Below the pieces are notes generated by a model that saw nothing but the letters and a program-made list of their open reading frames with translations, searched no databases and was not told the origin of the DNA. Positions 47,204-64,000 of a DNA stretch of 64,000 bases are shown piece after piece. Numbering within the stretch: the stretch's first letter is position 1; each line of letters opens with the position of its first letter. This DNA comes from Rhodoblastus sphagnicola (GTDB taxonomy: Bacteria > Pseudomonadota > Alphaproteobacteria > Rhizobiales > Beijerinckiaceae). Location of the stretch: positions 62,001 through 126,000 of the forward strand of contig NZ_NHSJ01000043.1 of NCBI RefSeq assembly GCF_002937075.1, given 5' to 3'. A program made the translations under genes and the position numbers.

Positions 47204-48637
47204 TCAATCCTCAAGCAACTGCTTGAGCAGGTCCAGTTCGCGCTTCAGCGAATTGTCCTGGGCCACCAACCCGTCGATTTTACGCACGGCGTGCAGAACG
47301 GTGGTGTGATCGCGGCCTCCGAACCGACGGCCGATCTCCGGCAGGGAGCGCGGCGTCAGGATCTTGGCGAGATACATGGCGATCTGACGCGGCTTGACCA
47401 CATTCGCCGTGCGACGCGAAGACAGGATATCGGCGCGGCTGACATTGAAATGTGTCGCCACCAGCTTCTGGATGTCTTCGATCTTGATGCGCTTGGCCTC
47501 GCGGTGCCGGATCAGGTCGCGAATGGCGTTTTCGGCCTGCTCCATCGACAAGACGGAGCCAACCAGCGTGGTATGGGCGAGCAGGCGATTGACCGCGCCG
47601 TCGAGATCGCGGCCGTTGGTCCGGATCAGGTTCGCCACCATCTTGACGACGGCGGGCGAGACGTCGAACGCGGGCTGAACAATTTTGGTCGCGGCGACTC
47701 TGGCCTCGACGATGTTCAGGCGCAATTCATCGTCCAGCGGATGAATTTCGACGCAAAGACCGCCAGCCAACCGTGAGCGGATGCGTTCATCGAGATTGTC
47801 GAGCTCATTCGGCACGCGATCGCAGGCGATGACGACCTGCCGCCCATTGTCGATCAGCGCGTTGATCGTGTGGCAAAACTCCTGCTGGATCGTCTTGCCC
47901 TGCAGGAATTGCACGTCGTCAACGATGAGAATGTCGATGCCGCGCAGGGACTCCTTGAAAGACAGCGACGTCTGCGCCTTGAGCGCCGACACGAAACTGT
48001 ACATGAACTTTTCGGCGGTGAGATAAAGCGCGTTGCGCCCGGCCACCGTCGCGTTGTGCGCGATCGCCTGGACCAGATGCGTTTTCCCAAGGCCGACGCC
48101 CGCGTGGACATAGAACGGGTTGTAGATCGATGACGAGCGGCTGACTTCCTGCGCGGCGGAGAACGCCAGTTGATTGGATTTGCTGACCAGAAAGGTCGAG
48201 AAATTCATGCGCGTGTCGAGCACGGAGGTCTCGACGCCCGTATTGGCTTCCTTGAACATCTCACGCGGTCGCGCCGACCCGGCCGCCGCCTGCGAACCCG
48301 AAACGCGCGACTGGCCGGCGGGTTCGGCTTCGGCGCCCACGACGCTGAAGGTTGTGGTGCGTACAGAAAGGCAAATCTCGGATATCGCGGGCAATTGCGC
48401 GAGCGCTATCGCGCGAAGCTTGTCGTAATAATGTGCATGAATCCAGCTTTTCAGAAATTTTGTCGGCACGGACAGATAGGCGCAACCATCCGCAATACGA
48501 TCCAACTCAAGCCGGGTGAACCAAGACGAGTAAATGGCGTCACCCAGTTCAGCCCGCAAAACGGCGCAAAACTTCGTCAACTCATCGCTGCGGGAGTTGG
48601 CGCCGGTTAGTGCTTTTTGAGTGTTTGCCTTTGACAT
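47204..48637 (-). CDS. dnaA: Chromosomal replication initiator protein DnaA
   Basis: A 477-residue initiator. Domain I is within residues 15-90 (LGDAIYSSWFTRLELDRIAD), domain III has the AAA+ motifs VHAGVGLGKTHLVQAIA, ILIVDDVQFLQGK and CDRVPNELDNLDERIRSRL, and domain IV ends in RQIAMYLAKILTPRSLPEIG and GGRDHTTVLHAVRKID, the DnaA-box-binding signature. It binds ATP and opens the chromosome origin. It stands alone: no dnaN or recF adjoins it, which is normal in many alphaproteobacteria. An AT-rich tract lies 200 bases upstream. Confidence 0.96.
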   Translation of the reverse strand: MSKANTQKALTGANSRSDELTKFCAVLRAELGDAIYSSWFTRLELDRIADGCAYLSVPTKFLKSWIHAHYYDKLRAIALAQLPAISEICLSVRTTTFSVVGAEAEPAGQSRVSGSQAAAGSARPREMFKEANTGVETSVLDTRMNFSTFLVSKSNQLAFSAAQEVSRSSSIYNPFYVHAGVGLGKTHLVQAIAHNATVAGRNALYLTAEKFMYSFVSALKAQTSLSFKESLRGIDILIVDDVQFLQGKTIQQEFCHTINALIDNGRQVVIACDRVPNELDNLDERIRSRLAGGLCVEIHPLDDELRLNIVEARVAATKIVQPAFDVSPAVVKMVANLIRTNGRDLDGAVNRLLAHTTLVGSVLSMEQAENAIRDLIRHREAKRIKIEDIQKLVATHFNVSRADILSSRRTANVVKPRQIAMYLAKILTPRSLPEIGRRFGGRDHTTVLHAVRKIDGLVAQDNSLKRELDLLKQLLED

Positions 48638-51087: not shown

Positions 51088-51924
51088 TCACAGGCGCGCG
51101 GCGTGCCAGGCGATATGGTCCGCCATGAAACTTGAGATGAAATAATAGGAGTGGTCGTAGCCCTCGCGCATGTTGAGCGTGAGCGGAATGCCAGCCTTCC
51201 GGCAGGCCGCCTCCAGCAGCCAGGGTTTCAGCCCCTTGTCCAGAAACGAGTCGGCGCCGCCCTGATCGACCAGGAATTCCTTGAATTTTTTGCCATCGGC
51301 GATCAGCAAAGTGGCGTCGTAGGCGCGCCATGCCGCCTCGTCGGCCCCCAAAAATTTGGTCAGCGCGGGGATCGACCAGTCGCTGGTGGAGGGTTGCACG
51401 ATGGGCGCGAAGGCCGAGCAGCTCTTGAAGCGCTCGGGATGTTTCAGCGCCAGGGTCAGCGCGCCATGGCCGCCCATGGAATGGCCGAACACCCCCTGGC
51501 GCGACAGGTCGGCGGCCGGAAATTGCTCCGCAATCAGCTCGGGCAATTCCCGCGCAATATAGGAATACATGCGGTAATTGCGGTCATAGGGCGCTTGGGT
51601 GGCGTCGAGATAGAAGGCCGCGCCGGAGCCGAATTGCCAATTGTCCTTCTCGTCGGGCACATCGTCGCCCCTTGGCGAGGTGTCCGGGCACACGATCATC
51701 ACGCCATGGCGCGCCGCCGCCGCCCGGAACTCGCCCTTTTCGGTGACATTGGCGTGGGTGCAGGTGAGGCCGGAGAGATACCACAGCACCGGAACTTTCC
51801 CCGTCACGCCTTGAGGCGGAACGAAGACCGAAAAGGTCATGGGGGTTTTGGTCTCGCGCGAATCGTGGCGATAGACGCCTTGAACGCCCCCATGCGCTTT
51901 GGCGGTCGATACGGTTTCCATCAA
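51088..51924 (-). CDS. fghA: S-formylglutathione hydrolase
   Basis: A 278-residue esterase D-type serine hydrolase that splits S-formylglutathione into formate and glutathione in the glutathione-linked formaldehyde route. The nucleophile elbow is GVFGHSMGGHGALT near residue 145, the N-terminal part shows VPVLWYLSGLTCTHANVTEKG, and the catalytic Asp and His are in the C-terminal RKAGIPLTLNMREGYDHSYY region. Length is typical. gfa lies 70 bases upstream in the same direction, so both act in one pathway. The formaldehyde dehydrogenase is not in the window. Confidence 0.94.
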   Translation of the reverse strand: MMETVSTAKAHGGVQGVYRHDSRETKTPMTFSVFVPPQGVTGKVPVLWYLSGLTCTHANVTEKGEFRAAAARHGVMIVCPDTSPRGDDVPDEKDNWQFGSGAAFYLDATQAPYDRNYRMYSYIARELPELIAEQFPAADLSRQGVFGHSMGGHGALTLALKHPERFKSCSAFAPIVQPSTSDWSIPALTKFLGADEAAWRAYDATLLIADGKKFKEFLVDQGGADSFLDKGLKPWLLEAACRKAGIPLTLNMREGYDHSYYFISSFMADHIAWHAARL

Positions 51925-51993: not shown

Positions 51994-52566
51994 TCACGCC
52001 GCCAGCTTGCCCGCCGCCTTGGCGACATGGGAGGCGATGGCGTCCATCAGCGGCGGCGACAGGCAATCGTAAGGCTCCAGCCCGATCGACCTGAGTTGCG
52101 CGCGCACCTCGCCCATTTTCGCCGGCGGGAAGCCGGATTCGATGATCGAGGACACGAAGGCGGCGAATTGCGGCTCCTGCCAGCCCTGCTCGTTCGACAG
52201 TTCGGTGTGAACGAAATCGAGGCCGTAGAACGGATGGTTGGCGTTTTCGATGCGGCCGTACATATGCACGCCGCAGTCCCGGCAGGCATGGCGCTGGATG
52301 GTCGCGGACGCATCGACGACATGGAGCTTTTCGGCGCCGGACACGACTTTCAGATTGTCGCGCGAGACCACGGCGACGACCGAGAACACCGCGCCCTGGG
52401 GCTTCCAGCATTTGGTGCAGCCGCAGGCGTGATTATGCGCGACATTGCCGGTGATGCGCACCTGCACCGGATGATCGGCGCATTTGCAGGTGAGCGCCCC
52501 GCCCGCGAAATTGGGGTTGCCTTTCCTGACGCCATTATCGATCGACGGGTGAAGTTTCAGCGCCAT
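51994..52566 (-). CDS. gfa: S-(hydroxymethyl)glutathione synthase
   Basis: A 190-residue zinc protein that promotes condensation of formaldehyde with glutathione. The zinc-binding cysteines are in [27 protein letters not shown] and [12 protein letters not shown]. The protein begins [18 protein letters not shown], as in Paracoccus Gfa. The start at 52566 was chosen because a strong AAAGGAGG lies just upstream; an in-frame extension reaches another 64 codons but has no family features. It is the first gene before fghA. Confidence 0.93.
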
Positions 52567-52898
52567 GGGGGCCTCCTTTCGCATCATGGAAACGTTGGAC
52601 GTCGGTGAGCCGGCGGTCTCCGAACCTGAGTCGGCGTCGGAGCCGATATTGAAGAATTGCATGAGCTTTTTCAGCATCGCAGAAGCCTCCACTTTCGCGC
52701 GCGGCTTGCCCGCAAGCAGTTTTAAATGAAAAAACGCCAGACTTGCGAACACTCCCACGAAAAAACGCCAAGTCTTGCGGCAAGACTATCGCACCATGAT
52801 TATGGCACGGAGCTTCTGTCGCCGCATGGGCGGGAGTCTTAGAACTCTCTTATGATTTTCACATTGACGACTTAAAAATAATCGGCTGAATTCTTGTC
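52567..52898. promoter_or_regulatory. Repeat-rich control region between gfa and the binding-protein gene
   Basis: This 332-base divergent gap has three notable motifs: GCTTGC-CC-GCAAGC (52704-52717); two direct copies of GAAAAAACGCC followed by AGACTTGCG or AAGTCTTGCG (52728 and 52759); and the palindrome AGTCTTGC-G-GCAAGACT (52771-52787). An AT-rich stretch with TATGATT near 52850 could be a promoter for the rightward gene. No coding sequence is seen. The repeats look like operators for one regulator of the divergent genes. Confidence 0.4.
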
Positions 52899-54116
52899 AT
52901 GACGCAAGCAACGCCCGGCTCCCTCGCCCTCCGGCGCTTCAGCCGAGCTTTTTCGCTCGCGGGGCTCGCGCTTGTGTTGGCGGCGGCCGCATGGGCCGAC
53001 CCGTTGAAGATCGAGATCGCCTTCATCGCGCGCGCCCGCGCCCCGTCGCCGCCCTATGTGATCGACGCCCCGCCGCCCGGCGAAGGTTTTGACGGCGCCA
53101 AGCTCGCGGTGCAGGACAACGCCACCACCGGCGCCTTTCTCGACCAGAGTTTTGAATTGCGCGACGTCGAGCTTGGCGAGGATGAAAGCCCCGTCGAAGC
53201 AGCAAAACCGCTGCTGGCGCGGGGCGTCAAAATGTTCGTCAGCGCCCTGCCCGCCGACGAGACGCTGGCGCTGGCCGATGCGCTCAAAACCCAGGGCGCG
53301 CTGCTGTTCAACGCCGGAGCGACCGACGATTTTTTGCGCGGCTCCGCGTGCCGCTCGAACCTGTTCCATACCGCGCCGAGCCGGGCCATGCTGACCGACG
53401 CTCTGGCGCAATATCTGGCGGTGCGGCGCTGGAGCAAGGTTTTGCTGGTTCCCGGCCCCAACGCTGGCGACGCGGCCTATGCCAGCGCCTTCCGCGCCTC
53501 GGCGAAGAAATTCGGCGTGAAAATCGTCGCCGAAAAGCCCTGGGCTTTTGGGCCGCTGGCCCGCGCCCGCTCCGATGCGGTGACGGAGGCCGAAGCCCTC
53601 ACTTTTGCACGCAATGTGGAGGCTGATCTCATCGTCGTCGCCGACGAGGCCGACGATTTTGGCGACTATATCCTCTACCGCACCGCCGAACCGCGCCTCG
53701 TCGCCGGGACACAGGGGCTGACGCCGGTGTCGTGGCACCCGACCCATACCGCCTATGGCTCCGAGCAATTGCAGAACCGCTTCATCCGCATGACCAAGCG
53801 CCGGATGCGGCCGATCGATTATCAGGCCTGGATCGCGGTGCGCGCCATCGGCGAAGCCGTGACCGAACTGCGGTCCGCCGACCCCGCCAAAATCGGCTCG
53901 GACATGCAGGGGCCGGGCTTCAACCTCGCCATTTTCAAGGGCGCGGCGGCGAGTTTCCGGCCCTGGGACCGGCAATTGCGGCAGGCCATTCTGCTGGCGC
54001 AGCCGAAATCCCTGATCGGCCTCGCGCCGCTGCCGGAATTCTTGCATCAGCGCAACACGCTGGACAGTTTGGGCGTCGACGCGAGCGAAAGCGCCTGCAA
54101 ACCGGGGACGCCATGA
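52899..54116 (+). CDS. ABC-type substrate-binding protein of the PQQ-alcohol dehydrogenase system
   Basis: A 405-residue periplasmic binding protein with a signal peptide ending near AAAAWA, then a type I binding fold (IEIAFIARARAPSPPYVID and MLTDALAQYLAVRRWSKVLL segments). The end has the family pattern FRPWDRQLRQAILLAQPK and FLHQRNTLDSLG, seen in TIGR03863, proteins encoded with PQQ-dependent alcohol dehydrogenases. The usual ATPase and permease genes do not follow. Its stop codon overlaps the propeller start by four bases. Ligand unknown; a quinone or alcohol-derived signal has been suggested for relatives only by context. Confidence 0.85.
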   Translation: MTQATPGSLALRRFSRAFSLAGLALVLAAAAWADPLKIEIAFIARARAPSPPYVIDAPPPGEGFDGAKLAVQDNATTGAFLDQSFELRDVELGEDESPVEAAKPLLARGVKMFVSALPADETLALADALKTQGALLFNAGATDDFLRGSACRSNLFHTAPSRAMLTDALAQYLAVRRWSKVLLVPGPNAGDAAYASAFRASAKKFGVKIVAEKPWAFGPLARARSDAVTEAEALTFARNVEADLIVVADEADDFGDYILYRTAEPRLVAGTQGLTPVSWHPTHTAYGSEQLQNRFIRMTKRRMRPIDYQAWIAVRAIGEAVTELRSADPAKIGSDMQGPGFNLAIFKGAAASFRPWDRQLRQAILLAQPKSLIGLAPLPEFLHQRNTLDSLGVDASESACKPGTP

Positions 54117-55075
54117 AAGCCTTCCGCCTCGCCCTTGTCGCCTGCGTTGTCGCCAGCCCGGCCAGCGCCTATCGCATCTATGTCACCAACGAAAAAGCCA
54201 ACACGATCACCGTGATCGACAGCGACACGCTGACCGTGACGCAAACGGTCAAGGCAGGGCGCCGGCCGCGCGGCGTGCGGGTCAGCCCCGACGGCAAGCT
54301 GCTTTACGTCTGCGCCAGCGACGAGGATGGAATCCAGGTGTTCGACACCGCGACGATGAAGCTGCTGCGCACGCTGGAGTCCGGCCCGGACCCGGAGCAG
54401 TTCGCGATGAACGCGGCCGGCGACCTGCTCTACATCGCCAACGAGGACAATGCGCAAGTGACCGTGCTCGACGTGGTAAAAAACCAGGTCGTCGCCAATG
54501 TGCCCGTTGGCGTCGAGCCGGAGGGCATGGCGCTGAGCCCCGACGGTTCGGTGCTGGTCAACACCTCCGAGACCACCAATATGGCGCATTTCATCGACGC
54601 CAAAACTTTTAGACGGATCGACAATGTGCTGGTGGACAAGCGCCCGCGCTACGCCGTGTTCACGCCCGACGGCTCAAGACTGTGGGTGAGTTCGGAAGTC
54701 GGCGGAACCGTGTCGGTGATCTCCGCGAAAAACCGCGAGATCGTGAAGAAAATCCGCTTCGACGCGCCCGGCCTCACGCCCGAGGAAGTGCAGCCGGTCG
54801 GCATGCGCATGACGCGGGACGGCAAGACCGTTTTCGTCGCGCTCGGACCGGCCAACCGCGTCGCCGTGGTGGACGCGGAAACTTTTGAAATCCGCAAATA
54901 TATTCTGGTGGGACAGCGGGTCTGGCATCTGGCGCTCACGCCCGACGAAAGATACCTGTTCACCGCCAACGGCAATTCGAACGACGTCACCGTCATCGAT
55001 GTCGCCGCGTTGAAGGCGATCAAGTCTATTCCAGCAGGAGCGGCGCCCTTGGGCGTCGCGTCTTCTCCGAACTGA
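54113..55075 (+). CDS. YVTN beta-propeller protein of the PQQ-dependent system
   Basis: A 320-residue secreted protein. The signal peptide (ALVACVVASPASA) is followed by seven-bladed propeller repeats, seen as IYVTNEKANTITVIDSDTL, GRRPRGVRVSPDGKLLYVCA, LYIANEDNAQVTVLDVV and VEPEGMALSPDGSVLVNTS. It matches TIGR03866-type 'PQQ-dependent catabolism-associated beta-propeller' proteins, whose biochemical role is not settled. It is coupled to the binding-protein gene by ATGA. Its last 26 coding bases before the final codons are repeated 41 bases downstream, a recombination scar. Confidence 0.85.
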   Translation: MKAFRLALVACVVASPASAYRIYVTNEKANTITVIDSDTLTVTQTVKAGRRPRGVRVSPDGKLLYVCASDEDGIQVFDTATMKLLRTLESGPDPEQFAMNAAGDLLYIANEDNAQVTVLDVVKNQVVANVPVGVEPEGMALSPDGSVLVNTSETTNMAHFIDAKTFRRIDNVLVDKRPRYAVFTPDGSRLWVSSEVGGTVSVISAKNREIVKKIRFDAPGLTPEEVQPVGMRMTRDGKTVFVALGPANRVAVVDAETFEIRKYILVGQRVWHLALTPDERYLFTANGNSNDVTVIDVAALKAIKSIPAGAAPLGVASSPN

Positions 55076-55117
55076 AACCTGCGGCGCCCTTGGGCGTCGC
55101 GTCTTCGCCCAATTAGG
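55040..55117 (+). repeat. Duplicated 3' end of the propeller gene (26-bp direct repeat)
   Basis: GCGGCGCCCTTGGGCGTCGC plus GTCTTC occurs at 55040-55065 and again at 55081-55106. Each copy encodes AAPLGVASS and is followed by PN and a stop, but the last codons differ silently: TCT-CCG-AAC-TGA in the first copy and TCG-CCC-AAT-TAG in the second. The second copy lies in a different frame and after the stop codon, so it is untranslated debris. Confidence 0.8.
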
Positions 55118-55127
55118 TGGATCGGCC

Positions 55128-55808
55128 ATGCGGGGTTTTCGCGCCCATAAAGTCGCCCTCATGCTGAGGAGCCTGCGCAGCAGGCGTCTCGAAGCACGAG
55201 GGCGGCCCACGCGCCTTTCAGCGCTGCTTCTCTTGGCCTTCGCCACCCCCGCCCTGGCTGGCGGCCCTCCGCCGGCCGACGAGGATTGGCCCTGCCCGCA
55301 GCGGCGCGCCGGCGCCATCAGCCGGGCCGCGATCTGGGCCGGCCCGGCGGCCGAGAGCCGCTGGGACGACGACCGCGAGGCGGCGGCGCTGGCGCGAAAA
55401 CTGGCCTCGCGCCGCACCCCGCTCGACGAGGCCGATGCGCTGATCGAGGCCTTCGCCAAACAGGCCGGCGCGGACAAGGACAAACGGCTGACCCTGGTGT
55501 TCGAGGGAACGCTCGACCTGATCAATGGCGAGCGCGACAAGGTGATGTCGGCGATCGCGCGCTACGCCCGAGGGCAGAAGGCGCTGGCGGCGAAAGTGCG
55601 GGAGGACGCCGAAAAAGCCGCCGATGCGCAAGAGGGCCAGGGCGACATCACCGCGCCGGACGCCTTGGAGCAGGCGCATCCGGACCTCAAATGGGACAAG
55701 CGCATTTTCGACGACCGCGCGCAGACGCTGACCTATGTGTGCGAAAGCCCGGTGTTGCTGGAGAAGCGGGCGTTTGCGCTGGCGCGGGTCCTTCAAGAAA
55801 AATTGTAA
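55128..55808 (+). CDS. Secreted protein of unknown function in the quinoprotein cluster
   Basis: A 226-residue protein with an unusually long basic n-region, then a signal-peptide core (LSALLLLAFATPALAGG), ending near residue 45. The mature part is helical and charged with only two Cys (DWPCPQRR and TYVCESPV). No domain is recognised. Most of the codons for residues 10-26 are contributed by a palindromic repeat element (55154-55204), which reads through in frame, so the start may be ATG 55128 or ATG 55161, both of which keep the signal peptide. It follows the propeller gene where an ABC ATPase is expected. Confidence 0.65.
   Translation: MRGFRAHKVALMLRSLRSRRLEARGRPTRLSALLLLAFATPALAGGPPPADEDWPCPQRRAGAISRAAIWAGPAAESRWDDDREAAALARKLASRRTPLDEADALIEAFAKQAGADKDKRLTLVFEGTLDLINGERDKVMSAIARYARGQKALAAKVREDAEKAADAQEGQGDITAPDALEQAHPDLKWDKRIFDDRAQTLTYVCESPVLLEKRAFALARVLQEKL
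55154..55204. repeat. 51-base palindromic (REP/RPE-like) element inside a gene
   Basis: CGCCCTCATGCT (55154-55165) pairs with AGCACGAGGGCG (55193-55204) with one mismatch, and an inner hairpin GCCTGC-GCA-GCAGGC sits in the centre. The sequence pattern CTGAGGAGCCTGCG...CGTCTCGAAGCACGAGG matches a palindromic repeat common between genes in Hyphomicrobiales. Here it is within a coding frame without a stop, before the signal peptide core. Confidence 0.75.
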
Positions 55809-56024
55809 CGGTGCGGCATCTTTGATCTAGCCTGTTGTTCCACAAATACTTTTGGCAGAAATCCCCAAATTCATAAGAATAAAATAATAAGGTTTTTCGG
55901 CTCTAGCGGAACAGAAGGAATTTTATTTCGTTGTTTGCCGGAGCGGGAGAACATACTCTCTCAGTTGCCGCAATCCGGGCGTCAGACCTGGATGCGGGAG
56001 GAAGCGCAATGCAGGGCATGACAC

Positions 56025-56729
56025 ATGAATGTTCTGATTATCGAAAATGATCTGGTGGCCGGAGGCGTACTCGCCGAAGGCCTGAAAGCCGAAGGTTTTG
56101 ACGTTACCTTCGTTCAAAAAGCCGAAGACCCCGTGGAGACCGTCAAGGCGCTCAACCCTTGCGCCGTGGTGTTCGACACCCCCTTGGCCGACGGCAGCGA
56201 TCTCGAAACCTGTCGGGCCATGCGCCGCCATGGCCGCACCGAGCCGATCCTGTTCCTGAGCGACCGGCGCGATCCCGCCGACCGCGCCAATGGCTTGATG
56301 GCCGGGGCCGACGATTACATCGCCAAACCCTTCGCCTTCGAGGAATTTGTCGAACGGCTGCGGGCGCATCTGATGCATCGCTCGATCTCCGACGATTCGC
56401 GCGAGCGCCGCAAGGTCGGGCAATTGATCCTGGATATGCACACGCGCCAGGCGCATTACGGCAAGGCCCATATCCGCTTGACCCAGCGCGAGGCGGAACT
56501 GCTGGGCATTCTGATGGAAAACGCCAACCAGCCGGTATGCCGGGGCGACATATACGACCAGCTTTGGGGCGACCAGGGCTGTACGTCGTTGAATGTCGTG
56601 GATGTCTATCTGGGCTATCTCCGAACCAAATTCACGGAGATCACCCGCGTCGGCGGCCCCTTCATCAGCACGGTGCGCGGGCGCGGCTTCATGCTCGACA
56701 TCAACGGCTACAAATGCGCGGCGCGCTGA
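56025..56729 (+). CDS. OmpR/PhoB-type response regulator, orphan
   Basis: A 234-residue two-domain regulator. The receiver domain (about residues 1-115) has MNVLIIENDLVAG, the phosphoacceptor in CAVVFDTPLADGSDLE, and the conserved Lys in DDYIAKPFAFEEF. The C-terminal winged helix (LTQREAELLGILMENAN to FISTVRGRGFMLDI) binds DNA. No histidine kinase is adjacent, so its partner lies elsewhere or it is kinase-independent. An AT-rich 200-base promoter region precedes it. It could regulate the methanol-oxidation genes on either side; this is inference from position only. Confidence 0.9.
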   Translation: MNVLIIENDLVAGGVLAEGLKAEGFDVTFVQKAEDPVETVKALNPCAVVFDTPLADGSDLETCRAMRRHGRTEPILFLSDRRDPADRANGLMAGADDYIAKPFAFEEFVERLRAHLMHRSISDDSRERRKVGQLILDMHTRQAHYGKAHIRLTQREAELLGILMENANQPVCRGDIYDQLWGDQGCTSLNVVDVYLGYLRTKFTEITRVGGPFISTVRGRGFMLDINGYKCAAR

Positions 56730-56802
56730 GCGCCGACTGATCCTCCTCAAAACTTTCGGCGCGCGCCGCATCCGCGCGGGCGCGCCGGAGCGAGGTTTCT
56801 TC

Positions 56803-57459
56803 ATGCGTCATCTTTCTTCCGTGCTCAGCGCGGCGGCTTTTGCTTGCGCTGTTGTCGCCGGCGCCGCCTCCGGGGCGCAAGAGTCCCCGCTCTCGGCGGC
56901 CGACCTCCTGTTCGAACGCCCGCAATTGCAGGGGCTGAAGGCAGGCGACCGGCTGGAGTACAGCTACAGTTTCCACTCGGCTGACGAAAAACTGTTCGGG
57001 CCGGCCTTCGACGACCGCATCGGCCTGCGGGTCGAACCGGGCGAGGCTCCCGACAAGAGGCGCGTCGAGGTGGACCTGTTTTCGGCCGCGCGCCGACGCG
57101 CCGCCGGGCCGTTCGACGACATGACCGGCAATCCCCTGCTCAGCCTGATGCTGGAGGAGAACCTTCAGCGCCTCGCCGCGATTTTCCAGTCCAATCCGCG
57201 CTATATGAAGACCGCGATCCGCCTCGCCCTGCGCAACGCCGTCGCCAGCCCCGATTCTGCGGACGGCTGGCGCGTCGAGGTCGAGCCGTTCAGGAACGAC
57301 GTTCACAAGGCGCGGATGCACGGGCTGGAGACGCTGACCTACCGCTTCCGCGTGTCGGCGGCGGCGCCGGGCGAAATCACCGAGATCGACATTTTCGCCC
57401 GCGATCCCTCGGGCGCCGTCCTGTTCGAGGAGACCACCCGCTATGCCGGCAAGAACTAG
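56803..57459 (+). CDS. Secreted protein of unknown function
   Basis: A 218-residue protein with a clear signal peptide (MRHLSSVLSAAAFACAVVAG) cleaved near AASGAQ. The mature part has alternating strand-like segments (LKAGDRLEYSYSFHS, RVEVDLFSAARRR, LTYRFRVSAAAPG) and no cysteines, suggesting a beta-rich periplasmic fold. No family is recognised. The start follows GGAG in GGAGCGAGG; the frame is open 70 codons further upstream but lies in the response-regulator gene. It overlaps the next gene by 17 bases, so the two are expressed together. Confidence 0.7.
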   Translation: MRHLSSVLSAAAFACAVVAGAASGAQESPLSAADLLFERPQLQGLKAGDRLEYSYSFHSADEKLFGPAFDDRIGLRVEPGEAPDKRRVEVDLFSAARRRAAGPFDDMTGNPLLSLMLEENLQRLAAIFQSNPRYMKTAIRLALRNAVASPDSADGWRVEVEPFRNDVHKARMHGLETLTYRFRVSAAAPGEITEIDIFARDPSGAVLFEETTRYAGKN

Positions 57460-57790
57460 TTTTGCGCTCGGCTTGCTGCTGGCGGGAACTTTGGCGGCGG
57501 CGGCGCAGACTCCGGCGAACGATTTTCCCACCGAGGCGCGCGCCGACTATGTGTTCGCCTGCATGGCCGCCAATGGCCAGACGCCTGACGCCCTGAGAAA
57601 ATGCGCGTGCTCGATCGACATGGTCGCCTCGATCCTGCCTTACGACCGCTATGTCGAGGCGGAAACCGTGCTGTCGATGCGCCAGGGGCTGGGACGCAAG
57701 GCGTCGATGTTCCGCGCCGCCAATTTCGAGGACATGGTGGCCGACCTGCGCCGCGCCCAGGCCGAAGGCGAGATCCGCTGCTTTTACTGA
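57443..57790 (+). CDS. Small secreted cysteine-containing protein of unknown function
   Basis: A 115-residue protein with a signal peptide (FALGLLLAGTLAAAAQT). The mature part has four Cys: FACMAANG, a CAC pair in RKCACSID, and a C-terminal RCFY. Such spacing could form two disulfides or hold a metal. No known domain is recognised. It starts inside the preceding gene (17-base overlap) and ends ten bases from the convergent SoxYZ-like gene. Coupling suggests a joint function with the 218-residue protein. Confidence 0.7.
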   Translation: MPARTSFALGLLLAGTLAAAAQTPANDFPTEARADYVFACMAANGQTPDALRKCACSIDMVASILPYDRYVEAETVLSMRQGLGRKASMFRAANFEDMVADLRRAQAEGEIRCFY

Positions 57791-57800
57791 CGCCCAGCGC

Positions 57801-58601
57801 TCAATAGGCGGCGCCGTCGGCCGAAAACCTTTGCGCATAGGCGCCGCCCCTGGAATCCCTGGCTTCGATGCGCACGGGCTGGCCGTTGGCGACATAGCTG
57901 AAGCGGAAGGTCGGGTCTTCACTGAGGGAAATGCCGTTCTCCAGCGAAAACAGCAGCGCCTCGCCCTGGCTGACCCGCACCTGCGTCACATACCAGGCCG
58001 GCGTGTACATGCGGGTGATCTGGTCCATCTGCATGCCGGAATAATTGGGATGGCGGATCATCGCCTGCGCTTGCGCCATGCCTTGCGCGGCGAAAGAGCG
58101 AAAGCGCATTTTTCCCACATTGGCCCCGGCCTCGTCGGGGTCTTTCGAGGCCGGCGCCGAACAGCCGCCCGCCGCCTTTACATAGGCCTTCGCCATGTGC
58201 AGGGCGCCGCTCTCGGTCTCGGCGACGACGCGCACGAAGGAATAGGAATTGACCCGCAGGCGCAGCGCGAAATCGAAGGCGGCGTCATCAACGGGGCCGC
58301 GTCTGAAAACGGTCGCCAGCGGCGCGGGGTTCTCGTCCACGATCACCGTCGCCGCCACCACGCGGTCGCCCTTTTCGCGCGGCGGGAATTTCAGCTCGAC
58401 AGGCACAAGCGCGGCGTCTTCCGCGCGCGGCGGCGCGTCCAGCGTCACATAGCCCGGCGCCTCGTCGATCGGCTTGTCGGCGAAGAACATGGCTTTGAGT
58501 CCCGTCCACGTCTCCTCGCTCTCGGCGGCGTGCGCGGAACATGCGAACGAAGCGACGGGCAGAAGCAGGGCGCAGTGCAGCAACAGGCGGCGGTTCGGCA
58601 T
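57801..58601 (-). CDS. Quinoprotein-dehydrogenase-associated SoxYZ-like carrier
   Basis: A 266-residue secreted fusion. After a signal peptide (LLHCALLLPVASFACSA) comes a SoxY-like domain (about residues 30-147) ending in AAGGCSAP, where Cys147 corresponds to the swinging-arm cysteine of SoxY, and then a SoxZ-like domain (GKMRFRSFAAQG, HPNYSGMQMDQITR, IRIEAR-like end). In thiosulfate oxidation SoxYZ carries sulfur intermediates on that cysteine. No other sox genes are present, so the carried group is unknown. It is the last gene of the leftward xoxFGJ unit, ten bases after the CxxxCW gene. Confidence 0.85.
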   Translation of the reverse strand: MPNRRLLLHCALLLPVASFACSAHAAESEETWTGLKAMFFADKPIDEAPGYVTLDAPPRAEDAALVPVELKFPPREKGDRVVAATVIVDENPAPLATVFRRGPVDDAAFDFALRLRVNSYSFVRVVAETESGALHMAKAYVKAAGGCSAPASKDPDEAGANVGKMRFRSFAAQGMAQAQAMIRHPNYSGMQMDQITRMYTPAWYVTQVRVSQGEALLFSLENGISLSEDPTFRFSYVANGQPVRIEARDSRGGAYAQRFSADGAAY

Positions 58602-58611
58602 GGCGGCGTCC

Positions 58612-59148
58612 TCAGCTTCCGTAGGGCTGAACAATTTCCGTCGGCAGATCGGCCTCGCGCCAGCCCTCGATCCCCTCGGAGAACCACTGGACGGCGCTAT
58701 AGCCGTAGCTTTGCGCGCGACGCGCCGCATTCCACGACATCCAGCAGTCACGCTTGCAGAAGATCACGATTTTGCGCGAAAAATCGCCGGCGGTGAGCGC
58801 GGACAGGGCTTGGCGAAAATAGGTCTCGGTCCGCGCCGAAACTTCGCCGCGCCCGACATCCGGCAGCCAGATCGCGCCCTTGATGCTGACATGCGGCTTG
58901 TCGACAAAGACCGTGGCGGGCGAGAGGCCCTCCGGGCGCGGCGCGTGCGGCAGAACGTCGAGGAACAGGGCTTGGCCGGCGTCCCACAGCGCCCTGGCCT
59001 GGGCGACATCCAAAGCCGGTTGGCCGTTCAGGGTGGCGGGAACGGGGGATTGGTAATCGTCGAGCCGATAGGATGGCGGCTCGGCCGGCGCGGCGCCGAC
59101 CGCGAGCGTGAGGCCAAGCAGAAAGCCCATTGCGAGGCGGCCGCTCAT
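58612..59148 (-). CDS. PQQ-dependent catabolism-associated CxxxCW protein (rhodanese-like)
   Basis: A 178-residue secreted protein. A signal peptide (AMGFLLGLTLAVGAAPA) precedes a rhodanese-like domain: LFLDVLPHAPRPEGL, KGAIWLPDVGRGEV and IVIFCKRDCWMSWNAARRA, with Cys131, Cys135 and Trp136. It matches the TIGR03865-type family encoded with PQQ alcohol dehydrogenases. Rhodaneses transfer sulfur through a cysteine, which suits the SoxYZ-like carrier encoded next to it. It overlaps xoxJ by four bases. The reaction is not known. Confidence 0.85.
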   Translation of the reverse strand: MSGRLAMGFLLGLTLAVGAAPAEPPSYRLDDYQSPVPATLNGQPALDVAQARALWDAGQALFLDVLPHAPRPEGLSPATVFVDKPHVSIKGAIWLPDVGRGEVSARTETYFRQALSALTAGDFSRKIVIFCKRDCWMSWNAARRAQSYGYSAVQWFSEGIEGWREADLPTEIVQPYGS

Positions 59149-59993
59149 TCCGCCCCCTCCCCGCGCTGCGAACTCGCCCCGATTGGGGCCGCCTCGATTG
59201 GAACCAGCGGCGCGCCGTAATCGCGCAGCACGGCCTCGAAATCTTTTTTGCGCGCGCGGATGACATCGTTGAGGCGGTGCTTCCACTCCAGTTCGTTGCG
59301 GCGCAGGCCGAAGCCGATCCGATAGGCCAGCGCCGGCCGCTGGTCGGCGTGCAGCGGCGCGACCGCCAGCGGAACCGCCGCCTTTTTGGCGAAATAGCCG
59401 CCAATCGGCCCCCAGATCGCCAGCGCGTCAATGGCGCCGGTCTCGACATCGTGGATGGCCTCCTCGGCGGGCGAGGCGAAGCGGCGGTCCACCAGCAGGG
59501 CGTAGGTTTTGGCCTTATCGAGCAGGCCGAGGCGCAGCAGGTGGTCTGTCGGCGGCGTCGCCGCGATCACCCCCAGTTTGACGCCCGCCAGACGCGGATC
59601 GTCGAGGGTTTCAACATTTTCCAGCCCGGATCCGGCGCGCGACACCAGCGCATAGGTCGAGGCGTAATAGGGGTTGGAATGATCGACCACGTCCGAGCCG
59701 ACGGCATAGCCGACGATCACGTCGCACATGCCCTCGCCGAGCGTGGCGCGCACAAAACCCGGCCCTTGCGGCATCCAGAAATAGCGCAGCGGCAGTTTCA
59801 ACTCGTCCGCGACGATTTCGGCGATGCGGTTCTCGAACCCCGCCTTGGCCTTGTCGGAATAGGGCAGGTTTGACGGGTCGGCGCAGACGCGCAGGCGGTC
59901 GCGCGAGACGAGGTCGGGCCGCGTTTGCGCCAGCGCGGCGCCGGCTGCGGTCAGGACGACAACGAGGCCGAGGGCGCCGCGCAAAAAGCCCAT
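59145..59993 (-). CDS. xoxJ: XoxJ, periplasmic binding protein of lanthanide methanol dehydrogenase
   Basis: A 282-residue periplasmic protein of the MxaJ/XoxJ group in the type 3 solute-binding fold. A signal peptide (FLRGALGLVVVLTAAGAALA) is followed by RLRVCADPSNLPYSDKAKAGFENRI, a hallmark of the family, with LGEGMCDVIVGYAVGSD further on. It is thought to bind and help activate XoxF. It starts five bases after the xoxG stop, and the frame extending upstream inside xoxG was rejected. The order xoxF-xoxG-xoxJ is the standard one. Confidence 0.92.
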   Translation of the reverse strand: MGFLRGALGLVVVLTAAGAALAQTRPDLVSRDRLRVCADPSNLPYSDKAKAGFENRIAEIVADELKLPLRYFWMPQGPGFVRATLGEGMCDVIVGYAVGSDVVDHSNPYYASTYALVSRAGSGLENVETLDDPRLAGVKLGVIAATPPTDHLLRLGLLDKAKTYALLVDRRFASPAEEAIHDVETGAIDALAIWGPIGGYFAKKAAVPLAVAPLHADQRPALAYRIGFGLRRNELEWKHRLNDVIRARKKDFEAVLRDYGAPLVPIEAAPIGASSQRGEGAE

Positions 59994-59998
59994 GGCCG

Positions 59999-60583
59999 TC
60001 AGCTCGGCGCGCCCATGCAGGCGTTTTCGGCATCCTCCCACGCCTTCGGTTTGGGATCGTGGCCGGGCGGACGGGCGCGGCCCACCGCGTCGTCGGAGCG
60101 CGCTTTCAGATAGGTGTAGATGTCGTCGATGAAGCACATCACGTTCTTGTCGAGGCCGAGCGTCGGCATCACCTTGTCCTGGCCGTTTTCCAGGTTCTTC
60201 CTGCCATTGGCGACGGTGGAGAGAAAATCGCCGTAGGACAGCGTCTTCAGCGAATTGACGAGCGCCGGCGCATAGGAGGAGCCCATGCCGTCGGGGCCGT
60301 GGCAGCGCATGCATTCGGCGCTGTAGCGCTGGAAACCGGAATAAGTGTACCAATCGACCTTGCCGTTGGAATCGACCTTGTAAATCGGCTCGCCTTCGGC
60401 GTCGAAATACTTGCCGTCCTGGCTGGAGACGGCCGCGCGCGGCTCGGCCTGGGCGGGCGCGACGGCCTGGGCGGGCGCGACGACTTGGGCGGCGGTCACG
60501 GCCAGCGCGGCCATCATCAGCACGGCGAAACGGTTTGTTCCGGCGCGGCGGGTCTCTTTGACGAAATCGGTCACGACGCTCAT
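59999..60583 (-). CDS. xoxG: XoxG, c-type cytochrome electron acceptor of XoxF
   Basis: A 194-residue secreted cytochrome. It has a signal segment (FAVLMMAALAVTAAQ), a short VAPAQA repeat, and one haem motif CMRCHG near residue 91, with a Met ligand probably in the NGQDKVMPTLGL segment. The family is called methanol metabolism-related cytochrome c. It takes electrons from PQQ of XoxF and passes them to the respiratory chain. It lies 146 bases downstream of xoxF. Two further Cys (VMCFIDD and ENACMG) may form a disulfide. Confidence 0.93.
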   Translation of the reverse strand: MSVVTDFVKETRRAGTNRFAVLMMAALAVTAAQVVAPAQAVAPAQAEPRAAVSSQDGKYFDAEGEPIYKVDSNGKVDWYTYSGFQRYSAECMRCHGPDGMGSSYAPALVNSLKTLSYGDFLSTVANGRKNLENGQDKVMPTLGLDKNVMCFIDDIYTYLKARSDDAVGRARPPGHDPKPKAWEDAENACMGAPS

Positions 60584-60729
60584 TCCAATCGGTTTTGGGC
60601 GCGATCCTCTGTTCGCCCGCGCTGCCGGGCGTTCAAGAAAACTGGCGCCGGGAAGACGGACGCAATGTCTGGGAATGAAAATGCCGGGCGGACGGGTCGC
60701 CCGCCCGGCAATCAGGGGCTATCCTACGA

Positions 60730-62532
60730 TCACTCGGGGAGAGCGAAGACCGTCAGGGCGCCGCCAAGCGCGGTGTAATTGCTGAGCGCCGCATAGCCGC
60801 CGACCGCGCCAAGGCCGGCGTGGGGATCGGCGAGGCCAGCCGCGAGGCCGATGCCGGCCCAGCCGCCGACGCCGGAGAGCACGGCCACATATTGCCGGCC
60901 CTTGTGCTGGTAGGTCATGACGTTGCCGATAATGCCCGACGGGGTCTTGTACTTGTAGAGCAGCTTGCCCGTCTTGGCGTCCACGGCCTTGAGATAGCCT
61001 TCCAGCGTGCCGTAGAACACAATGTTGCCGGCGGTGGCGAGCGCGCCCGACCAGACCGAGAACTGTTCCGGATCGGACCAGACGATCTTGCCCTTGGTGG
61101 CGTCCCAGGCGATGAAATTGCCCATATTGGCGTCGCCGGGGGCCGGATACATCGCGAGCGTCGCGCCGACATAGGGCTGTCCCGGCGTGTAGCTGACGCG
61201 GAACGGCTCGTAATCCATGCAGACATGGTTGGTTGGCACGTAGAACAGGCCGGTCTTGGGCGAGAAGGCCGCGGGCTGCTCGTCCTTGGAGCCGAGCGCC
61301 GCCGGGCAGATGCCCTGCGAGTTCTCGTCCTCGCCATTATGCTCGGTGGAATATTTGGCGACCACCAGCGGACGGCCATAGGTCGGGCTGGCCTTGTCCA
61401 TATCGACCTTGCTGGCCCAGTTCACCGCCGGATCGTATTTCTCGGCGACCAGCAACTCGCCACTGACGCGGTCGAGCGTGTAGCCGAAGCCGTTGCGGTC
61501 GAAATGCACCAGCAGCTTGCGCTGCTTGCCGTCGATCTTCTGCTCGACCAGCGGCATTTCGTTGACGCCGTCGTAATCCCACTCGTCATGCGGGGTCATC
61601 TGATAGATCCATTTGGCCATGCCGGTGTCGGGATCGCGCGCCCAGATCGACATCGACCATTTGTTGTCGCCCGGCCGCTGCTTGGGGTTCCAGGTCGAGG
61701 GATTGCCGGAGCCGTAATAAACCAGATTCAGCTCGGGATCGTAGGAATACCAGCCCCAGGTGCAGCCGCCGCCGGTCTTCCACTGGTCGCCCTGCCAGGT
61801 TTTCAGCGACGAATCCTTGCCGATTGGCTTGCCGAGCGCGGTGGTCTTTTCCGGATCGACCATGATCTGATCGTCCGGGCCTTCGGAATAGGCGCGCCAG
61901 ACCTTCTTGCCGGTCTTCAGGTCATAGGCGGTGATGTGGCATTGCACGCCGAACTCGCCGCCGGAAATGCCGACCAGCAGCTTGTCCTTGACCGGAAGCA
62001 CCGTCGCGGTGTTGGTTTCGCCCTTCTTGGGGTCGCCGTTGACCGCGCTCCATTCGACCTTGCCGCTCTTGGCGTCGAGCGCGACCACCGTCGTGTCGGC
62101 CTGGTGCAGGAAGATCTTGCCATCGGCATAGGCGAGACCCCGGTTGACCGTGTCGCAGCACATCACCGGCACGACGTTGGGATCCTGCTTGGGCTCGTAT
62201 TTCCAGATGATCTTGCCGTCATTGTTGAGGTCGAGGGCATAGACGATGTTGGGGAACGGCGTGTGGACATACATCACGTCGCCGACGACCAGCGGCGCGC
62301 CTTCGTGGCCGCGCAGCACGCCGGTGGAAAAGCTCCAGGCCGGCGCCAGCTTGCCGACATTGGCGTCATTGATCTGGTCGAGCTTCGAATAGCGCTGGTT
62401 GTCGTAACCGCCGGCCTGCATGACCCATTGCTTGGGGTCCTGCGTCCCCTTCATGACCGATTCGTTGGCGAAGGCCACGGTGTTGAGCGCGAGAGCGCTG
62501 ACGGATAGAACAGATGCGAACAGGCTCTTCAT
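60730..62532 (-). CDS. xoxF: Lanthanide-dependent methanol dehydrogenase XoxF
   Basis: A 600-residue PQQ-dependent periplasmic dehydrogenase with a signal peptide ending near AFA. It shows the adjacent-cysteine disulfide [10 protein letters not shown] (125-126), Trp-docking repeats, Glu193 in GGEFG, Asn277 in GSGNPSTWN, and the DYD motif in [12 protein letters not shown]: Asp319 is the catalytic base and Asp321 the extra lanthanide ligand that calcium-type MxaF lacks. It oxidises methanol to formaldehyde, or further. The start follows GGAGGAAACCC. No small subunit gene (mxaI) is seen. It probably belongs to XoxF clade 5, which is inferred. Confidence 0.96.
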
Positions 62533-62828
62533 GGGTTTCCTCCAATGCCATAGCCCGTCGTCAGACGGGCGTCCGGACGCCCTACGGCCGACCGCGAACG
62601 GCGACATTGCCGCCGGGGGTTGGTCATTGTTTGATTTTGCTAAGCCGCCGCCAGCAGAGACTCGCGCTATGCAAAGTCTCGACTTGCTTGGGCACGGTCA
62701 TTATTTTTATGACTTGGAAAAGCTAATCTCTGCGCGGGGCGCCGGCAACAAGGCAAGGCCGCGTCGATCTTTAGATTTGACTTAGAAGCGCCCGCCCATG
62801 GCCTGAAAATTCTGTTGCGGCGCCATAA
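62533..62828 (-). promoter_or_regulatory. xoxF promoter and leader region
   Basis: Going upstream from xoxF, GCCCGTC-GTCA-GACGGGC (62553-62570) is a perfect hairpin 20 bases before the start codon, and it overlaps the perfect palindrome GCGTCCGGACGC (62569-62580). Farther up, GAGACT and AGTCTC are arms 12 bases apart (62657-62680), and GTCAT and ATGAC flank an AT-rich centre (62697-62713). No gene is seen. These could be a structured leader and two operators. A lanthanide-responsive role is only a hypothesis. Confidence 0.4.
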
Positions 62829-63800
62829 TCATTCCCACTCCTGCTCGTGATAGGCGGTGGTGGCGTTGCGGGCGTTGAAATCGTCGAACAGCCGCCATTT
62901 CGGACGCTCGGACGCGGCGGCCGTCGTGGCGGTCTGGCTCAGGGTCTCCCCCCTGCGCAGGGCGTCGCCGACATCGCCGCGCAGGCGCCGCAGATAGGAC
63001 TCCTCTGCGTCAGCGGCCTGAGGCCACGCCATCGCGGCCGGTCCATGTCCGGGAACCACGATTCGGGCGGGGCGTTGCCGCAGCTTCGTCACATTGGCGA
63101 GCCAGCCGGTCAGTTTGCCGTCCAGGGCGGGAATGTGACCGGAAAAAAGCAGATCGCCCAAATAGATGGCGCCGCTTGCCTCGTCCGTGACCGTCAGATC
63201 GGCGTTGGTATGGCCGGAGGGCCAGCTTTCGAGCTTCAGCTTGCGTCCGCCCAGGTCCAGCTCCCTTTCCCCCTCGACCAGCACGGTCGGCGCGACGATT
63301 TGCGTTCCCGCGAAATTGGCCTCCCCGACCAGCTCGCGGGCGGCGCGCAGATAGGCGTCGCCGTGGGTCGCGAAAACGTCGGGGAGGGCGCGATGGCCGA
63401 CAAAGATCGGGTTCTGGTCGAGAAAAGCGGCGGCGCCGAGGGTGTGATCGGGATGGCCATGCGTAAAAATGACATAAAGCACGGGCAGACCGGTCGTGGC
63501 TCGAATGGCCGCGAGCAGGCGCTTGCCGACCGTCACGCTTCCGCCTGTATCGATGATCGCGACGCCGTCGCGGCCGACGATGAAGCCGGAATTGCTGATC
63601 TGGCCCGCGTTTTGCTGACTTGAGAGTGCAATGACGCCCGGCAGGACGTAGTCTCCCGGCGCGATTTCGACAGCAGCGGACGGCGGCGCCTCTCCCGTTC
63701 CGGCGAAAGCCGGCGGAAAAGCATCAAGCCTCGGGATAACAAAAGCTGCGAGACTGACAAAGAGGAATGCCCGCATCACGCGCCGCGCCGCGCCGATCAT
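62829..63800 (-). CDS. Quinoprotein relay system metallo-beta-lactamase-fold hydrolase
   Basis: A 323-residue secreted metallo-beta-lactamase-fold protein. A hydrophobic export signal (RAFLFVSLAAFVIPRL) precedes the domain with NSGFIVGRDGVAIIDTGGS, the zinc motif FTHGHPDHTLGAAAF (HxHxDH), SGHTNADLTV, IYLGDLLFSGHIPAL and VVPGHGPAAMAW. The pattern fits the SoxH-related 'quinoprotein relay system zinc metallohydrolases' found near PQQ dehydrogenases. It is upstream of xoxF in the same direction, separated by a 296-base promoter region. The start is uncertain (ATG at 63800, 63776 or 63884). Substrate unknown. Confidence 0.85.
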   Translation of the reverse strand: MIGAARRVMRAFLFVSLAAFVIPRLDAFPPAFAGTGEAPPSAAVEIAPGDYVLPGVIALSSQQNAGQISNSGFIVGRDGVAIIDTGGSVTVGKRLLAAIRATTGLPVLYVIFTHGHPDHTLGAAAFLDQNPIFVGHRALPDVFATHGDAYLRAARELVGEANFAGTQIVAPTVLVEGERELDLGGRKLKLESWPSGHTNADLTVTDEASGAIYLGDLLFSGHIPALDGKLTGWLANVTKLRQRPARIVVPGHGPAAMAWPQAADAEESYLRRLRGDVGDALRRGETLSQTATTAAASERPKWRLFDDFNARNATTAYHEQEWE

Positions 63801-63874
63801 CGGCGCGCGCGGCCGGGGAACGCCTGGAAGCCTGGACTCAGGCGACGTCGTCGTCTCGCGCAAAGGAACATCCC

Positions 63875-64000
63875 ATGTCCGCATTCACCGCCATCATCCT
63901 TGTATGTCAGCTCTCGACGCCGCCGCAGGCCTGCGACGAAACCCACGCGGTCGATGTCATCTCGACCCAGGTGGAAAACCAGTTCGCCTGCCTGCACGGC
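63875..64000 (+). CDS. Start of a secreted protein, cut by window edge
   Basis: An open frame starts at ATG 63875 after AAAGGAACA and runs off the window with no stop for 42 codons. It begins MSAFTAIILVCQLSTPPQAC, a short possible signal segment, and has further Cys near the edge (AFCLH-like, seen as FACLHG). It is divergent from the metallohydrolase gene. Too little is visible to assign a family. Confidence 0.5.
   Translation, partial: MSAFTAIILVCQLSTPPQACDETHAVDVISTQVENQFACLHG

What the first reader, a model, noticed from the sequence alone, without database searches (positions are those of the whole stretch)
52899..63800. Quinoprotein 'relay' cluster around lanthanide XoxF, lacking its ABC transporter partners
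Seen: an ABC-type binding protein, YVTN propeller, three secreted unknown proteins, an orphan response regulator, a SoxYZ-like fusion carrier, a CxxxCW rhodanese-like protein, XoxJ, XoxG, XoxF and a metallo-beta-lactamase-fold protein, all within 11 kb. Known: TIGR03863/TIGR03866-type proteins are usually followed by an ABC ATPase and permease. Inference: here the binding protein and propeller act without import, perhaps as periplasmic sensors or assembly factors for the Ln/PQQ enzyme, together with sulfur-type cysteine chemistry (CxxxCW plus SoxYZ-like). This is the best candidate for an undescribed system.
Basis: partly seen in the sequence, partly recalled or inferred. Interest (0 to 1): 0.72.

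Follow-up and report, generated by a model that had tools for sequence, protein, structure and literature searches.

The report
Lanthanide methanol-oxidation locus with relocated importer
This is a lanthanide-dependent methanol-oxidation gene cluster built from known parts; the import pump that seemed to be missing is encoded elsewhere in the same genome, and the unusual points are that the pump genes are not in the cluster and that its regulator has no partner sensor beside it.

Summary
The gene list is right; "lacking its ABC partners" holds only for this stretch. The genome carries the TIGR03864 ATPase and TIGR03861 permease on contig C29, beside a second binding protein and propeller. The lone pair is not random: 4 of 4 held genus genomes have it plus a separate complete set, and a named Rhodoblastus MAG matches gene for gene. 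Nor is it unique: 14 fetched lone pairs fall in seven genera, and Methylocella silvestris LutBAH homologues beside xoxF1 are in print (PMC9291206). The three "unknown" secreted proteins match LutG, Orf7 and Orf6 by homology and gene order. The orphan regulator resembles MxbM. Relative G073 holds lutABEFG, lanM-like, mxbDM, pqq, orf7-orf6, xoxJ, xoxG and a gap-cut xoxF in one run; this locus looks like that one minus lutEF, mxbD and pqq. Best reading: a lanthanide-methylotrophy locus whose LutA/LutB-like pair feeds the distant LutEF core. New detail: five of five Rhodoblastus-group regulators lack the EDD acidic pocket that eight of eight kinase-linked relatives keep, yet are strongly constrained between close species.

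The parts
52899..54116 (+). Periplasmic binding protein, TIGR03863 (LutA/PedA1-like)
   Evidence: 38.9% identical to the second copy on contig C29; tree clade with Methylobacterium-type copies, SH-aLRT 98
54113..55075 (+). YVTN beta-propeller, TIGR03866 (LutB/PedA2-like); its ATG overlaps the stop of the binding protein
   Evidence: 50.3% identical to the C29 copy
55128..55808 (+). Secreted-looking protein, LutG homologue (no NCBIfam family; in Pfam only PIN at E 0.031, below cut-off); annotated N-terminus overlaps a dispersed repeat, so the start may lie further in
   Evidence: 35 of 119 family genomes; directly after the permease in Methylobacterium lut loci; alignment A1; repeat
56025..56729 (+). 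OmpR-type response regulator, MxbM-like, no kinase gene beside it, altered acidic pocket (E7 N8 D9 instead of EDD)
56803..57459 (+). Secreted-looking protein, homologue of the gene next to pqqE in Methylobacterium (Orf7 position)
   Evidence: 10 of 119 family genomes
57443..57790 (+). Small secreted-looking protein with four invariant cysteines among 20 aligned copies (Orf6 position)
   Evidence: 35 of 119 family genomes
57801..58601 (-). Fused SoxYZ-like carrier, TIGR04557, GGC motif
58612..59148 (-). CxxxCW rhodanese-like protein, TIGR03865
59145..59993 (-). XoxJ-type protein, TIGR03871
59999..60583 (-). XoxG cytochrome, TIGR03874, CxxCH
   Evidence: the only match at E <= 1e-30 in this genome
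60730..62532 (-). XoxF methanol dehydrogenase, XoxF5-like, DYD motif and vicinal cysteines
62829..63884 (-). Metallo-beta-lactamase-fold protein, TIGR04559 (quinoprotein relay zinc metallohydrolase 2), HxHxDH; start codon uncertain
51994..52758 (-). S-(hydroxymethyl)glutathione synthase (gfa); start codon uncertain
51088..51924 (-). S-formylglutathione hydrolase (fghA)

Best explanation
The stretch is the lanthanide-dependent methanol oxidation locus of a Rhodoblastus-type bacterium. XoxF oxidises methanol to formaldehyde in the periplasm, XoxG takes the electrons, and XoxJ, the SoxYZ-like/CxxxCW/metallohydrolase trio, and the LutG, Orf6 and Orf7 homologues assist enzyme maturation, metal supply or redox protection; gfa, fghA and class III formaldehyde dehydrogenase beside it remove the formaldehyde. 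The binding protein and propeller are a LutA/LutB-like pair without neighbouring LutE/LutF genes. It most likely hands lanthanide (free or chelated) in trans to the one LutEF-type ABC core encoded on contig C29, next to that core's own LutA/LutB-like pair. Shown: family identities, gene order, conservation, purifying selection, presence of the ABC genes in the genome. Inferred: lanthanide as the ligand, delivery in trans, and the roles of the accessory proteins.
For: Family assignments over curated cut-offs. ATPase, permease, second binding protein and propeller on C29. All 52 of 52 sampled genomes with the binding protein have the ATPase. In G061 the ABC genes (L101) have no binding protein in the fetched 11 kb and both binding-protein pairs (L100, L102) are unlinked; in G021 the only pair (L130) and the ATPase (C27) are on separate contigs. 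If that core works, it must be fed in trans. Relative G073 has lutA, lutB, lutE, lutF, lutG, lanM-like, mxbD, mxbM, pqqB, pqqCD, pqqE, orf7, orf6, xoxJ, xoxG and the end of xoxF in one run. Pairwise omega below 0.3 against two close species for all 12 genes 52899-63884. The homologous systems move lanthanides in M. extorquens (PMC7391723, passages) and Pseudomonas putida (PMC12997753, passages).
Against: No expression, binding or deletion data for this organism. C29 already has its own binding protein and propeller, so the window pair is not needed to complete a transporter. The two binding proteins are only 38.9% identical, so they may not dock on the same permease. Beijerinckiaceae bacterium RH AL1 keeps lanthanides mostly in the periplasm, and its authors suggest that its lut ABC homologues might have another function (PMC8316094, passages). 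In M. silvestris the equivalent pair is lowered three- to fivefold by lanthanide (PMC9291206), which fits uptake but not a fixed role with XoxF5.
Confidence: 0.6

Rival explanations
1. The window pair works in the periplasm only: the binding protein and propeller carry or insert lanthanide (or PQQ) into XoxF or report on it, and no longer touch any ABC transporter.
For: Pairs without ABC genes fall in at least four groups of the binding-protein tree, and 12 of 14 such fetched pairs have a XoxF-family match in the fetched stretch against 13 of 38 ABC-linked ones (a coarse count: stretches differ in length and the XoxF match of L123 is weak at 101 bits). The pair stays under purifying selection in the genus.
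Against: All 52 of 52 sampled genomes with the binding protein keep a TIGR03864-type ATPase; in G061 and G021 the only ABC core has no linked binding protein. Deleting lutA slows growth and deleting lutE or lutF stops it until suppressors arise in M. extorquens (PMC7391723, passages), a transport pattern.
Confidence: 0.25
2. The pair is a decaying leftover of a former lut operon without function.
For: No lutEF at the locus; the lone binding protein evolves slightly faster than the linked one (omega 0.17 and 0.20 against 0.13 and 0.12 for the same two genome pairs). The propeller shows no such difference (0.11 and 0.19 against 0.15 and 0.16).
Against: Open frames in four of four genus genomes and in the named Rhodoblastus MAG; omega well under 1; propeller 88-90% identical between close species.
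Confidence: 0.05
3. The C29 ABC genes are the window cluster's own lutEF that moved away, so nothing was lost.
For: AU tests do not reject a clade of the Methylobacterium/g35 ABC proteins with the genus' C29 proteins (ATPase p 0.46, permease p 0.147).
Against: The binding-protein tree joins the window set to g35 (SH-aLRT 93), but g35 plus genus is rejected for both ABC proteins (p 0.0025 and 0.0002); C29 carries its own, different binding protein, and a within-genus duplication is rejected for it (p 3e-6; propeller p 0.04). These groups were chosen after seeing the trees.
Confidence: 0.15

Closest known systems
lut cluster of Methylorubrum/Methylobacterium (lutABCDEFGH, lanM)
   Same: Binding protein, propeller and LutG homologue in the same order; a LutH-like TonB receptor (39% identical) elsewhere in the genome
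   Different: No lutEF, lutH or lanM-like match at the locus; ABC core on another contig; the locus is fused to xoxFGJ and to orf6/orf7 homologues
PedA1A2BC lanthanide transporter and PP_2666/PP_2677/PP_2678 of Pseudomonas putida
   Same: By the published annotation (PMC12997753) the same kinds of protein: binding protein, propeller, rhodanese-domain protein, SoxYZ-like carrier, SoxH-like metallohydrolase
   Different: In P. putida the ABC genes are in the cluster and the lanthanide enzyme is PedH, not XoxF
xoxF1 locus of Methylocella silvestris BL2 (PMC9291206) and the similar loci L093, L096, L127
   Same: LutA/LutB-like pair beside a xoxF
   Different: Beside another XoxF type (493-499 bits to the window XoxF against over 1000 for XoxF5-like copies) with a LutH-like gene near; their binding proteins form another branch
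MxbDM two-component system with pqq genes of Methylobacterium
   Same: Response regulator 51-53% identical, in the same place between lutG and orf7/orf6 in relative G073
   Different: No kinase beside it; best kinase matches in the four genus genomes are 31-37% identical; acidic pocket changed

Membership tests
TIGR03863 binding protein (LutA/PedA1-like) | Score over the curated cut-off, full length | tested here: met
   439.6 bits against 413.6, profile 5-347 of 347
lut/PedA1A2BC lanthanide ABC transporter | Binding protein, propeller, ATPase and permease encoded together | tested here: not met
   No ATPase or permease between 52899 and 63884; met at G000:C29
lut/PedA1A2BC lanthanide ABC transporter | Lanthanide uptake activity | not testable with these tools
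   Needs binding, uptake or growth tests
XoxF5 lanthanide methanol dehydrogenase | Extra lanthanide-binding Asp (DYD), vicinal cysteines | tested here: met
   Motifs; which Asp binds the metal is recalled
XoxF5 lanthanide methanol dehydrogenase | Placement in clade 5 | tested here: inconclusive
   Best PDB match 6oc5/6oc6 XoxF, 1150.6 bits; that this is M. extorquens XoxF1 of clade 5 is recalled; no XoxF tree was built
Quinoprotein-associated SoxYZ-like, CxxxCW and SoxH-like set | TIGR04557, TIGR03865, TIGR04559 over cut-off | tested here: met
LutG | Homologous to the gene after the permease in Methylobacterium lut loci | tested here: met
   45-48% over the aligned part to four genus g9 copies, placed after the permease; the AM1 protein itself was not compared
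Orf6/Orf7 | Homologous to the two genes next to pqqE in Methylobacterium | tested here: met
   AM1 sequences not compared, equivalence rests on the gene numbers given in PMC7391723
MxbDM two-component system | Cognate MxbD kinase encoded with the regulator | tested here: not met
   No kinase match at the locus; best kinase in G000 31% over residues 81-518, beside its own OmpR-type regulator
MxbDM two-component system | Intact receiver acidic pocket (EDD) | tested here: not met
   END in the window; D51, S79 and K101 kept

The most novel reading that the evidence does not exclude
In the Rhodoblastus group the lanthanide circuit has been rewired at this locus: together with lutEF, the sensor kinase mxbD is gone, and the MxbM-like regulator has lost its magnesium-binding acidic pocket while being the most constrained protein of the cluster between close species. 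It would then control xox genes without a kinase, either constitutively or by sensing something else, while the LutA/LutB-like pair handles lanthanide on the periplasmic side.
Probability: 0.25. Interest if true: 0.6.

Novelty: new variant of a known kind. Interest (0 to 1): 0.4.

Why it matters
How lanthanides get from the cell surface into XoxF, and whether they must pass through the cytoplasm to be sensed, is an open question. Genomes in which the binding protein and propeller sit with XoxF while the ABC core sits elsewhere, or where the core has no binding protein beside it, are natural test cases for separating import from periplasmic delivery. A regulator of the MxbM type that has lost both kinase and acidic pocket would show how the lanthanide switch can be simplified. 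The lutG, orf6/orf7 and mxbM equivalences also put testable names on four genes that looked unknown or orphan.

Tried and rejected
Tried and rejected. (1) "Loss of the calcium enzyme explains loss of MxbD": rejected as a general explanation, because G000 itself has an MxaI small subunit (C31) with MxaF- and MxaJ-like genes near it, although the three other genus genomes showed none. (2) "The window pair is a recent duplicate of the C29 pair": rejected by the AU test for the binding protein (p 3e-6), only marginally for the propeller (p 0.04). (3) [quoted passage not shown]: a ~60-base repeat covers about 55151-55211 and recurs on other contigs, but the G100 locus lacks lutEF without it, so I do not use it. 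(4) A named scan with the LutG alignment was not possible for want of conserved stretches; the propeller alignment was used instead. (5) PDB sequence searches gave no useful relative for LutG (best E 0.043) or the CxxxCW protein (0 at E <= 0.01), and one weak one for the binding protein (E 1.6e-4). (6) Structures of the LutG and Orf7 homologues could not be predicted (tool off). (7) PQQ-binding proteomics paper PMC13088180: the passages found held nothing on these proteins.

What the counts leave out. Trees used only fetched stretches: 53 binding proteins, 51 propellers, 43 ATPases, 42 permeases, quick method. Alignment A1 used 25 of the 29 other LutG-like loci (L058, L061, L066, L070 left out). 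The named scan kept the best 80 of 548 relatives. The 119 genomes are a sample drawn from a larger family.
Full report
What is there. On the plus strand: binding protein TIGR03863 (52899-54116), propeller TIGR03866 (54113-55075), a 226-residue secreted-looking protein, an OmpR-type response regulator, a 218-residue and a 115-residue secreted-looking protein. On the minus strand: SoxYZ-like TIGR04557, CxxxCW TIGR03865, XoxJ TIGR03871, XoxG TIGR03874, XoxF, and metallohydrolase TIGR04559. XoxF carries the DYD and CC motifs, the metallohydrolase HxHxDH, XoxG CxxCH, the carrier GGC and the rhodanese-like protein CxxxCW. XoxF is nearest to the solved XoxF 6oc5/6oc6, which I recall as M. extorquens XoxF1 of clade 5. 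The flanks are gfa and fghA on one side and, just outside the window, class III formaldehyde dehydrogenase on the other, so formaldehyde removal by glutathione surrounds the methanol enzyme.

The missing partners are in the genome. TIGR03864 was searched in the window's own assembly: 85 matches, one over the family's cut-off, at C29:4895-5596. Open frames around it give binding protein, propeller, ATPase and permease in one operon-like run; the permease scores 413.5 bits for TIGR03861. The C29 binding protein is 38.9% and its propeller 50.3% identical to the window copies. A LutH-like TonB receptor (39% identical to the Methylobacterium protein in lut position) is on C134 and pqqE on C100.

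Is the absence random? No. In a sample of 119 genomes of the family, 52 have a TIGR03863 protein at E <= 1e-20 and 54 a TIGR03864-type ATPase at E <= 1e-80; all 52 are among the 54. All 4 of 4 genomes of the window's genus have one lone pair near xoxG and one set of binding protein, propeller, ATPase and permease elsewhere. In G071 the block from gfa to orf6 is turned round, and the more distant G033 (its contig has the same length as one of the named MAG WY3.bin95) shows no SoxYZ-like, CxxxCW, 218-residue or metallohydrolase match at the locus.

Is it unique? No. Among the stretches I fetched, 15 had a binding protein without ATPase; 14 of these are pairs with a propeller (the other, L128, is at a contig end), in seven genera, against 38 with ATPase. 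On the binding-protein tree the lone pairs fall in at least four separate groups. Of the best 80 named propeller loci, 69 have the ATPase within 5 kb, 5 do not (one of these, L185, has it 7.5 kb away) and 6 end too soon to tell. In print, Methylocella silvestris BL2 has LutBAH homologues beside xoxF1, lowered three- to fivefold by lanthanide (PMC9291206, passages).

What the unknown proteins are. The 226-residue protein is in 35 of 119 genomes: all 34 that have XoxG and G035. The 115-residue protein is in the same 35, the 218-residue protein in 10. The first stands directly after the permease in Methylobacterium lut loci, which is the lutG position in M. extorquens AM1 (PMC7391723, passages). 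The other two stand next to pqqE in a Methylobacterium genome (L227), the place of orf6 and orf7 in AM1 by the gene numbers in that paper. In AM1, deletion of lutA, lutB, lutG, orf6 or orf7 slows or delays lanthanide-dependent growth, and lutE or lutF deletion stops it until suppressors arise (same passages). I did not compare AM1 sequences themselves; genus g9 is taken as Methylobacterium because contig G083:C5 has the length of the named Methylobacterium sp. Leaf112 contig (L145).

How the arrangement arose. Relative G073 (L085) carries lutA, lutB, lutE, lutF, lutG, an EF-hand lanM-like gene, mxbD, mxbM, pqqB, pqqCD, pqqE, orf7, orf6, then xoxJ, xoxG and the last 117 residues of a xoxF that is cut by a run of N in the assembly. 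G035 of the same genus has the same genes in two blocks within about 28 kb, with a complete xoxF (81% identical) but no XoxG match. The window keeps the G073 order without lutEF, lanM-like, mxbD and pqq, and adds the SoxYZ-like and CxxxCW genes. Window binding proteins group with those of G073's genus (SH-aLRT 93) inside a clade with Methylobacterium (98), and a within-genus duplication is rejected. Whether the old lutEF were lost or moved to C29 is less certain: grouping the C29 ABC proteins with g35 is rejected (p 0.0025, 0.0002), grouping them with the whole Methylobacterium/g35 set is not (p 0.46, 0.147). I favour loss.

How it works. The homologous transporters carry lanthanide from periplasm to cytoplasm in M. 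extorquens (PMC7391723, passages) and P. putida (PMC12997753, passages). The simplest reading is that the window pair delivers in trans to the C29 core. The best natural evidence is G061: its one ABC core has no binding protein in the fetched 11 kb and both its pairs stand alone at xoxF-like loci. A periplasm-only role remains possible. The SoxYZ-like, CxxxCW and metallohydrolase set is known to accompany PQQ dehydrogenases; disulfide formation, cofactor stabilisation and protection of PQQ from sulfur nucleophiles are the published suggestions (PMC12997753, section 15).

The regulator. It is 51-53% identical to response regulators that sit beside a histidine kinase and, in L227, the pqq genes in Methylobacterium. 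I name them MxbM and MxbD because MxbDM controls the lanthanide switch in this genus (PMC5784242, PMC7356819, passages); that mxbDM lies next to pqqA in AM1 is recalled. The window genus has no such kinase at the locus, and the best matches in its four genomes are 31-37% identical, over most of the protein in G071 and parts of it in the others; the one in G000 has its own regulator and a PQQ dehydrogenase beside it. The receiver's acidic pocket reads EDD in eight of eight MxbM-like regulators compared from outside the group, each with a kinase gene in the same fetched stretch, and in the G000 regulator of L259, but END, END, END, GHE and GED in the five Rhodoblastus-group proteins; the phospho-acceptor D51 and S79/K101 stay (the roles of these positions are recalled). 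Against all eight the window's receiver has diverged more than its DNA-binding part, whereas between L227 and six other kinase-linked proteins the two parts are about equal. Pairwise omega is 0.09 and 0.05 against the two close species, the lowest of the 12 genes, but 0.28 against G033, where it is not the lowest. A link to loss of the calcium enzyme does not hold, since G000 has MxaI.

Verdict. Known families, known kind of locus, unusual and conserved arrangement, with an unexpected change in the regulator. My paper searches found no description of this locus (one paper holds both "Rhodoblastus" and "xoxF", seen as a listing only), but the library lacks most subscription journals.

Noticed in passing
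42493-43782 (-) and 44182-46164 (+): Crotonyl-CoA carboxylase/reductase (619.6 bits) and a methylmalonyl-CoA-mutase-family protein (below the full equivalog cut-off, possibly ethylmalonyl-CoA mutase) lie next to each other, pointing to the ethylmalonyl-CoA pathway.
   Followed up: partly
47204-48637 (-): A DnaA replication initiator gene (455.1 bits for TIGR00362) lies about 4 kb before the binding protein gene.
   Followed up: no
55151-55211: A dispersed ~60-base repeat lies in the annotated N-terminus of the LutG homologue; copies lie on other contigs of the same genome, one at the start of the C29 propeller frame.
   Followed up: partly
L085 (G073:C53:68000-87900): A contiguous lut, lanM-like, mxbDM, pqq, orf7-orf6, xoxJ, xoxG supercluster ending in a xoxF cut by an assembly gap.
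   Followed up: yes
L259 (G000:C129:85000-96000): Another PQQ alcohol dehydrogenase gene next to its own OmpR-type regulator and histidine kinase, the latter the best MxbD match in this genome.
   Followed up: partly
L257 (G000:C31:5000-24000): The genome also carries MxaF-, MxaJ- and MxaI-like genes with a histidine kinase (sub-threshold MoxY-type domain) and a NarL-type regulator nearby; the three other genus genomes showed no MxaI.
   Followed up: partly
L125 and L126 (G003, G045): Two genomes of one genus have the ATPase and permease but no TIGR03863 binding protein at the threshold used.
   Followed up: no
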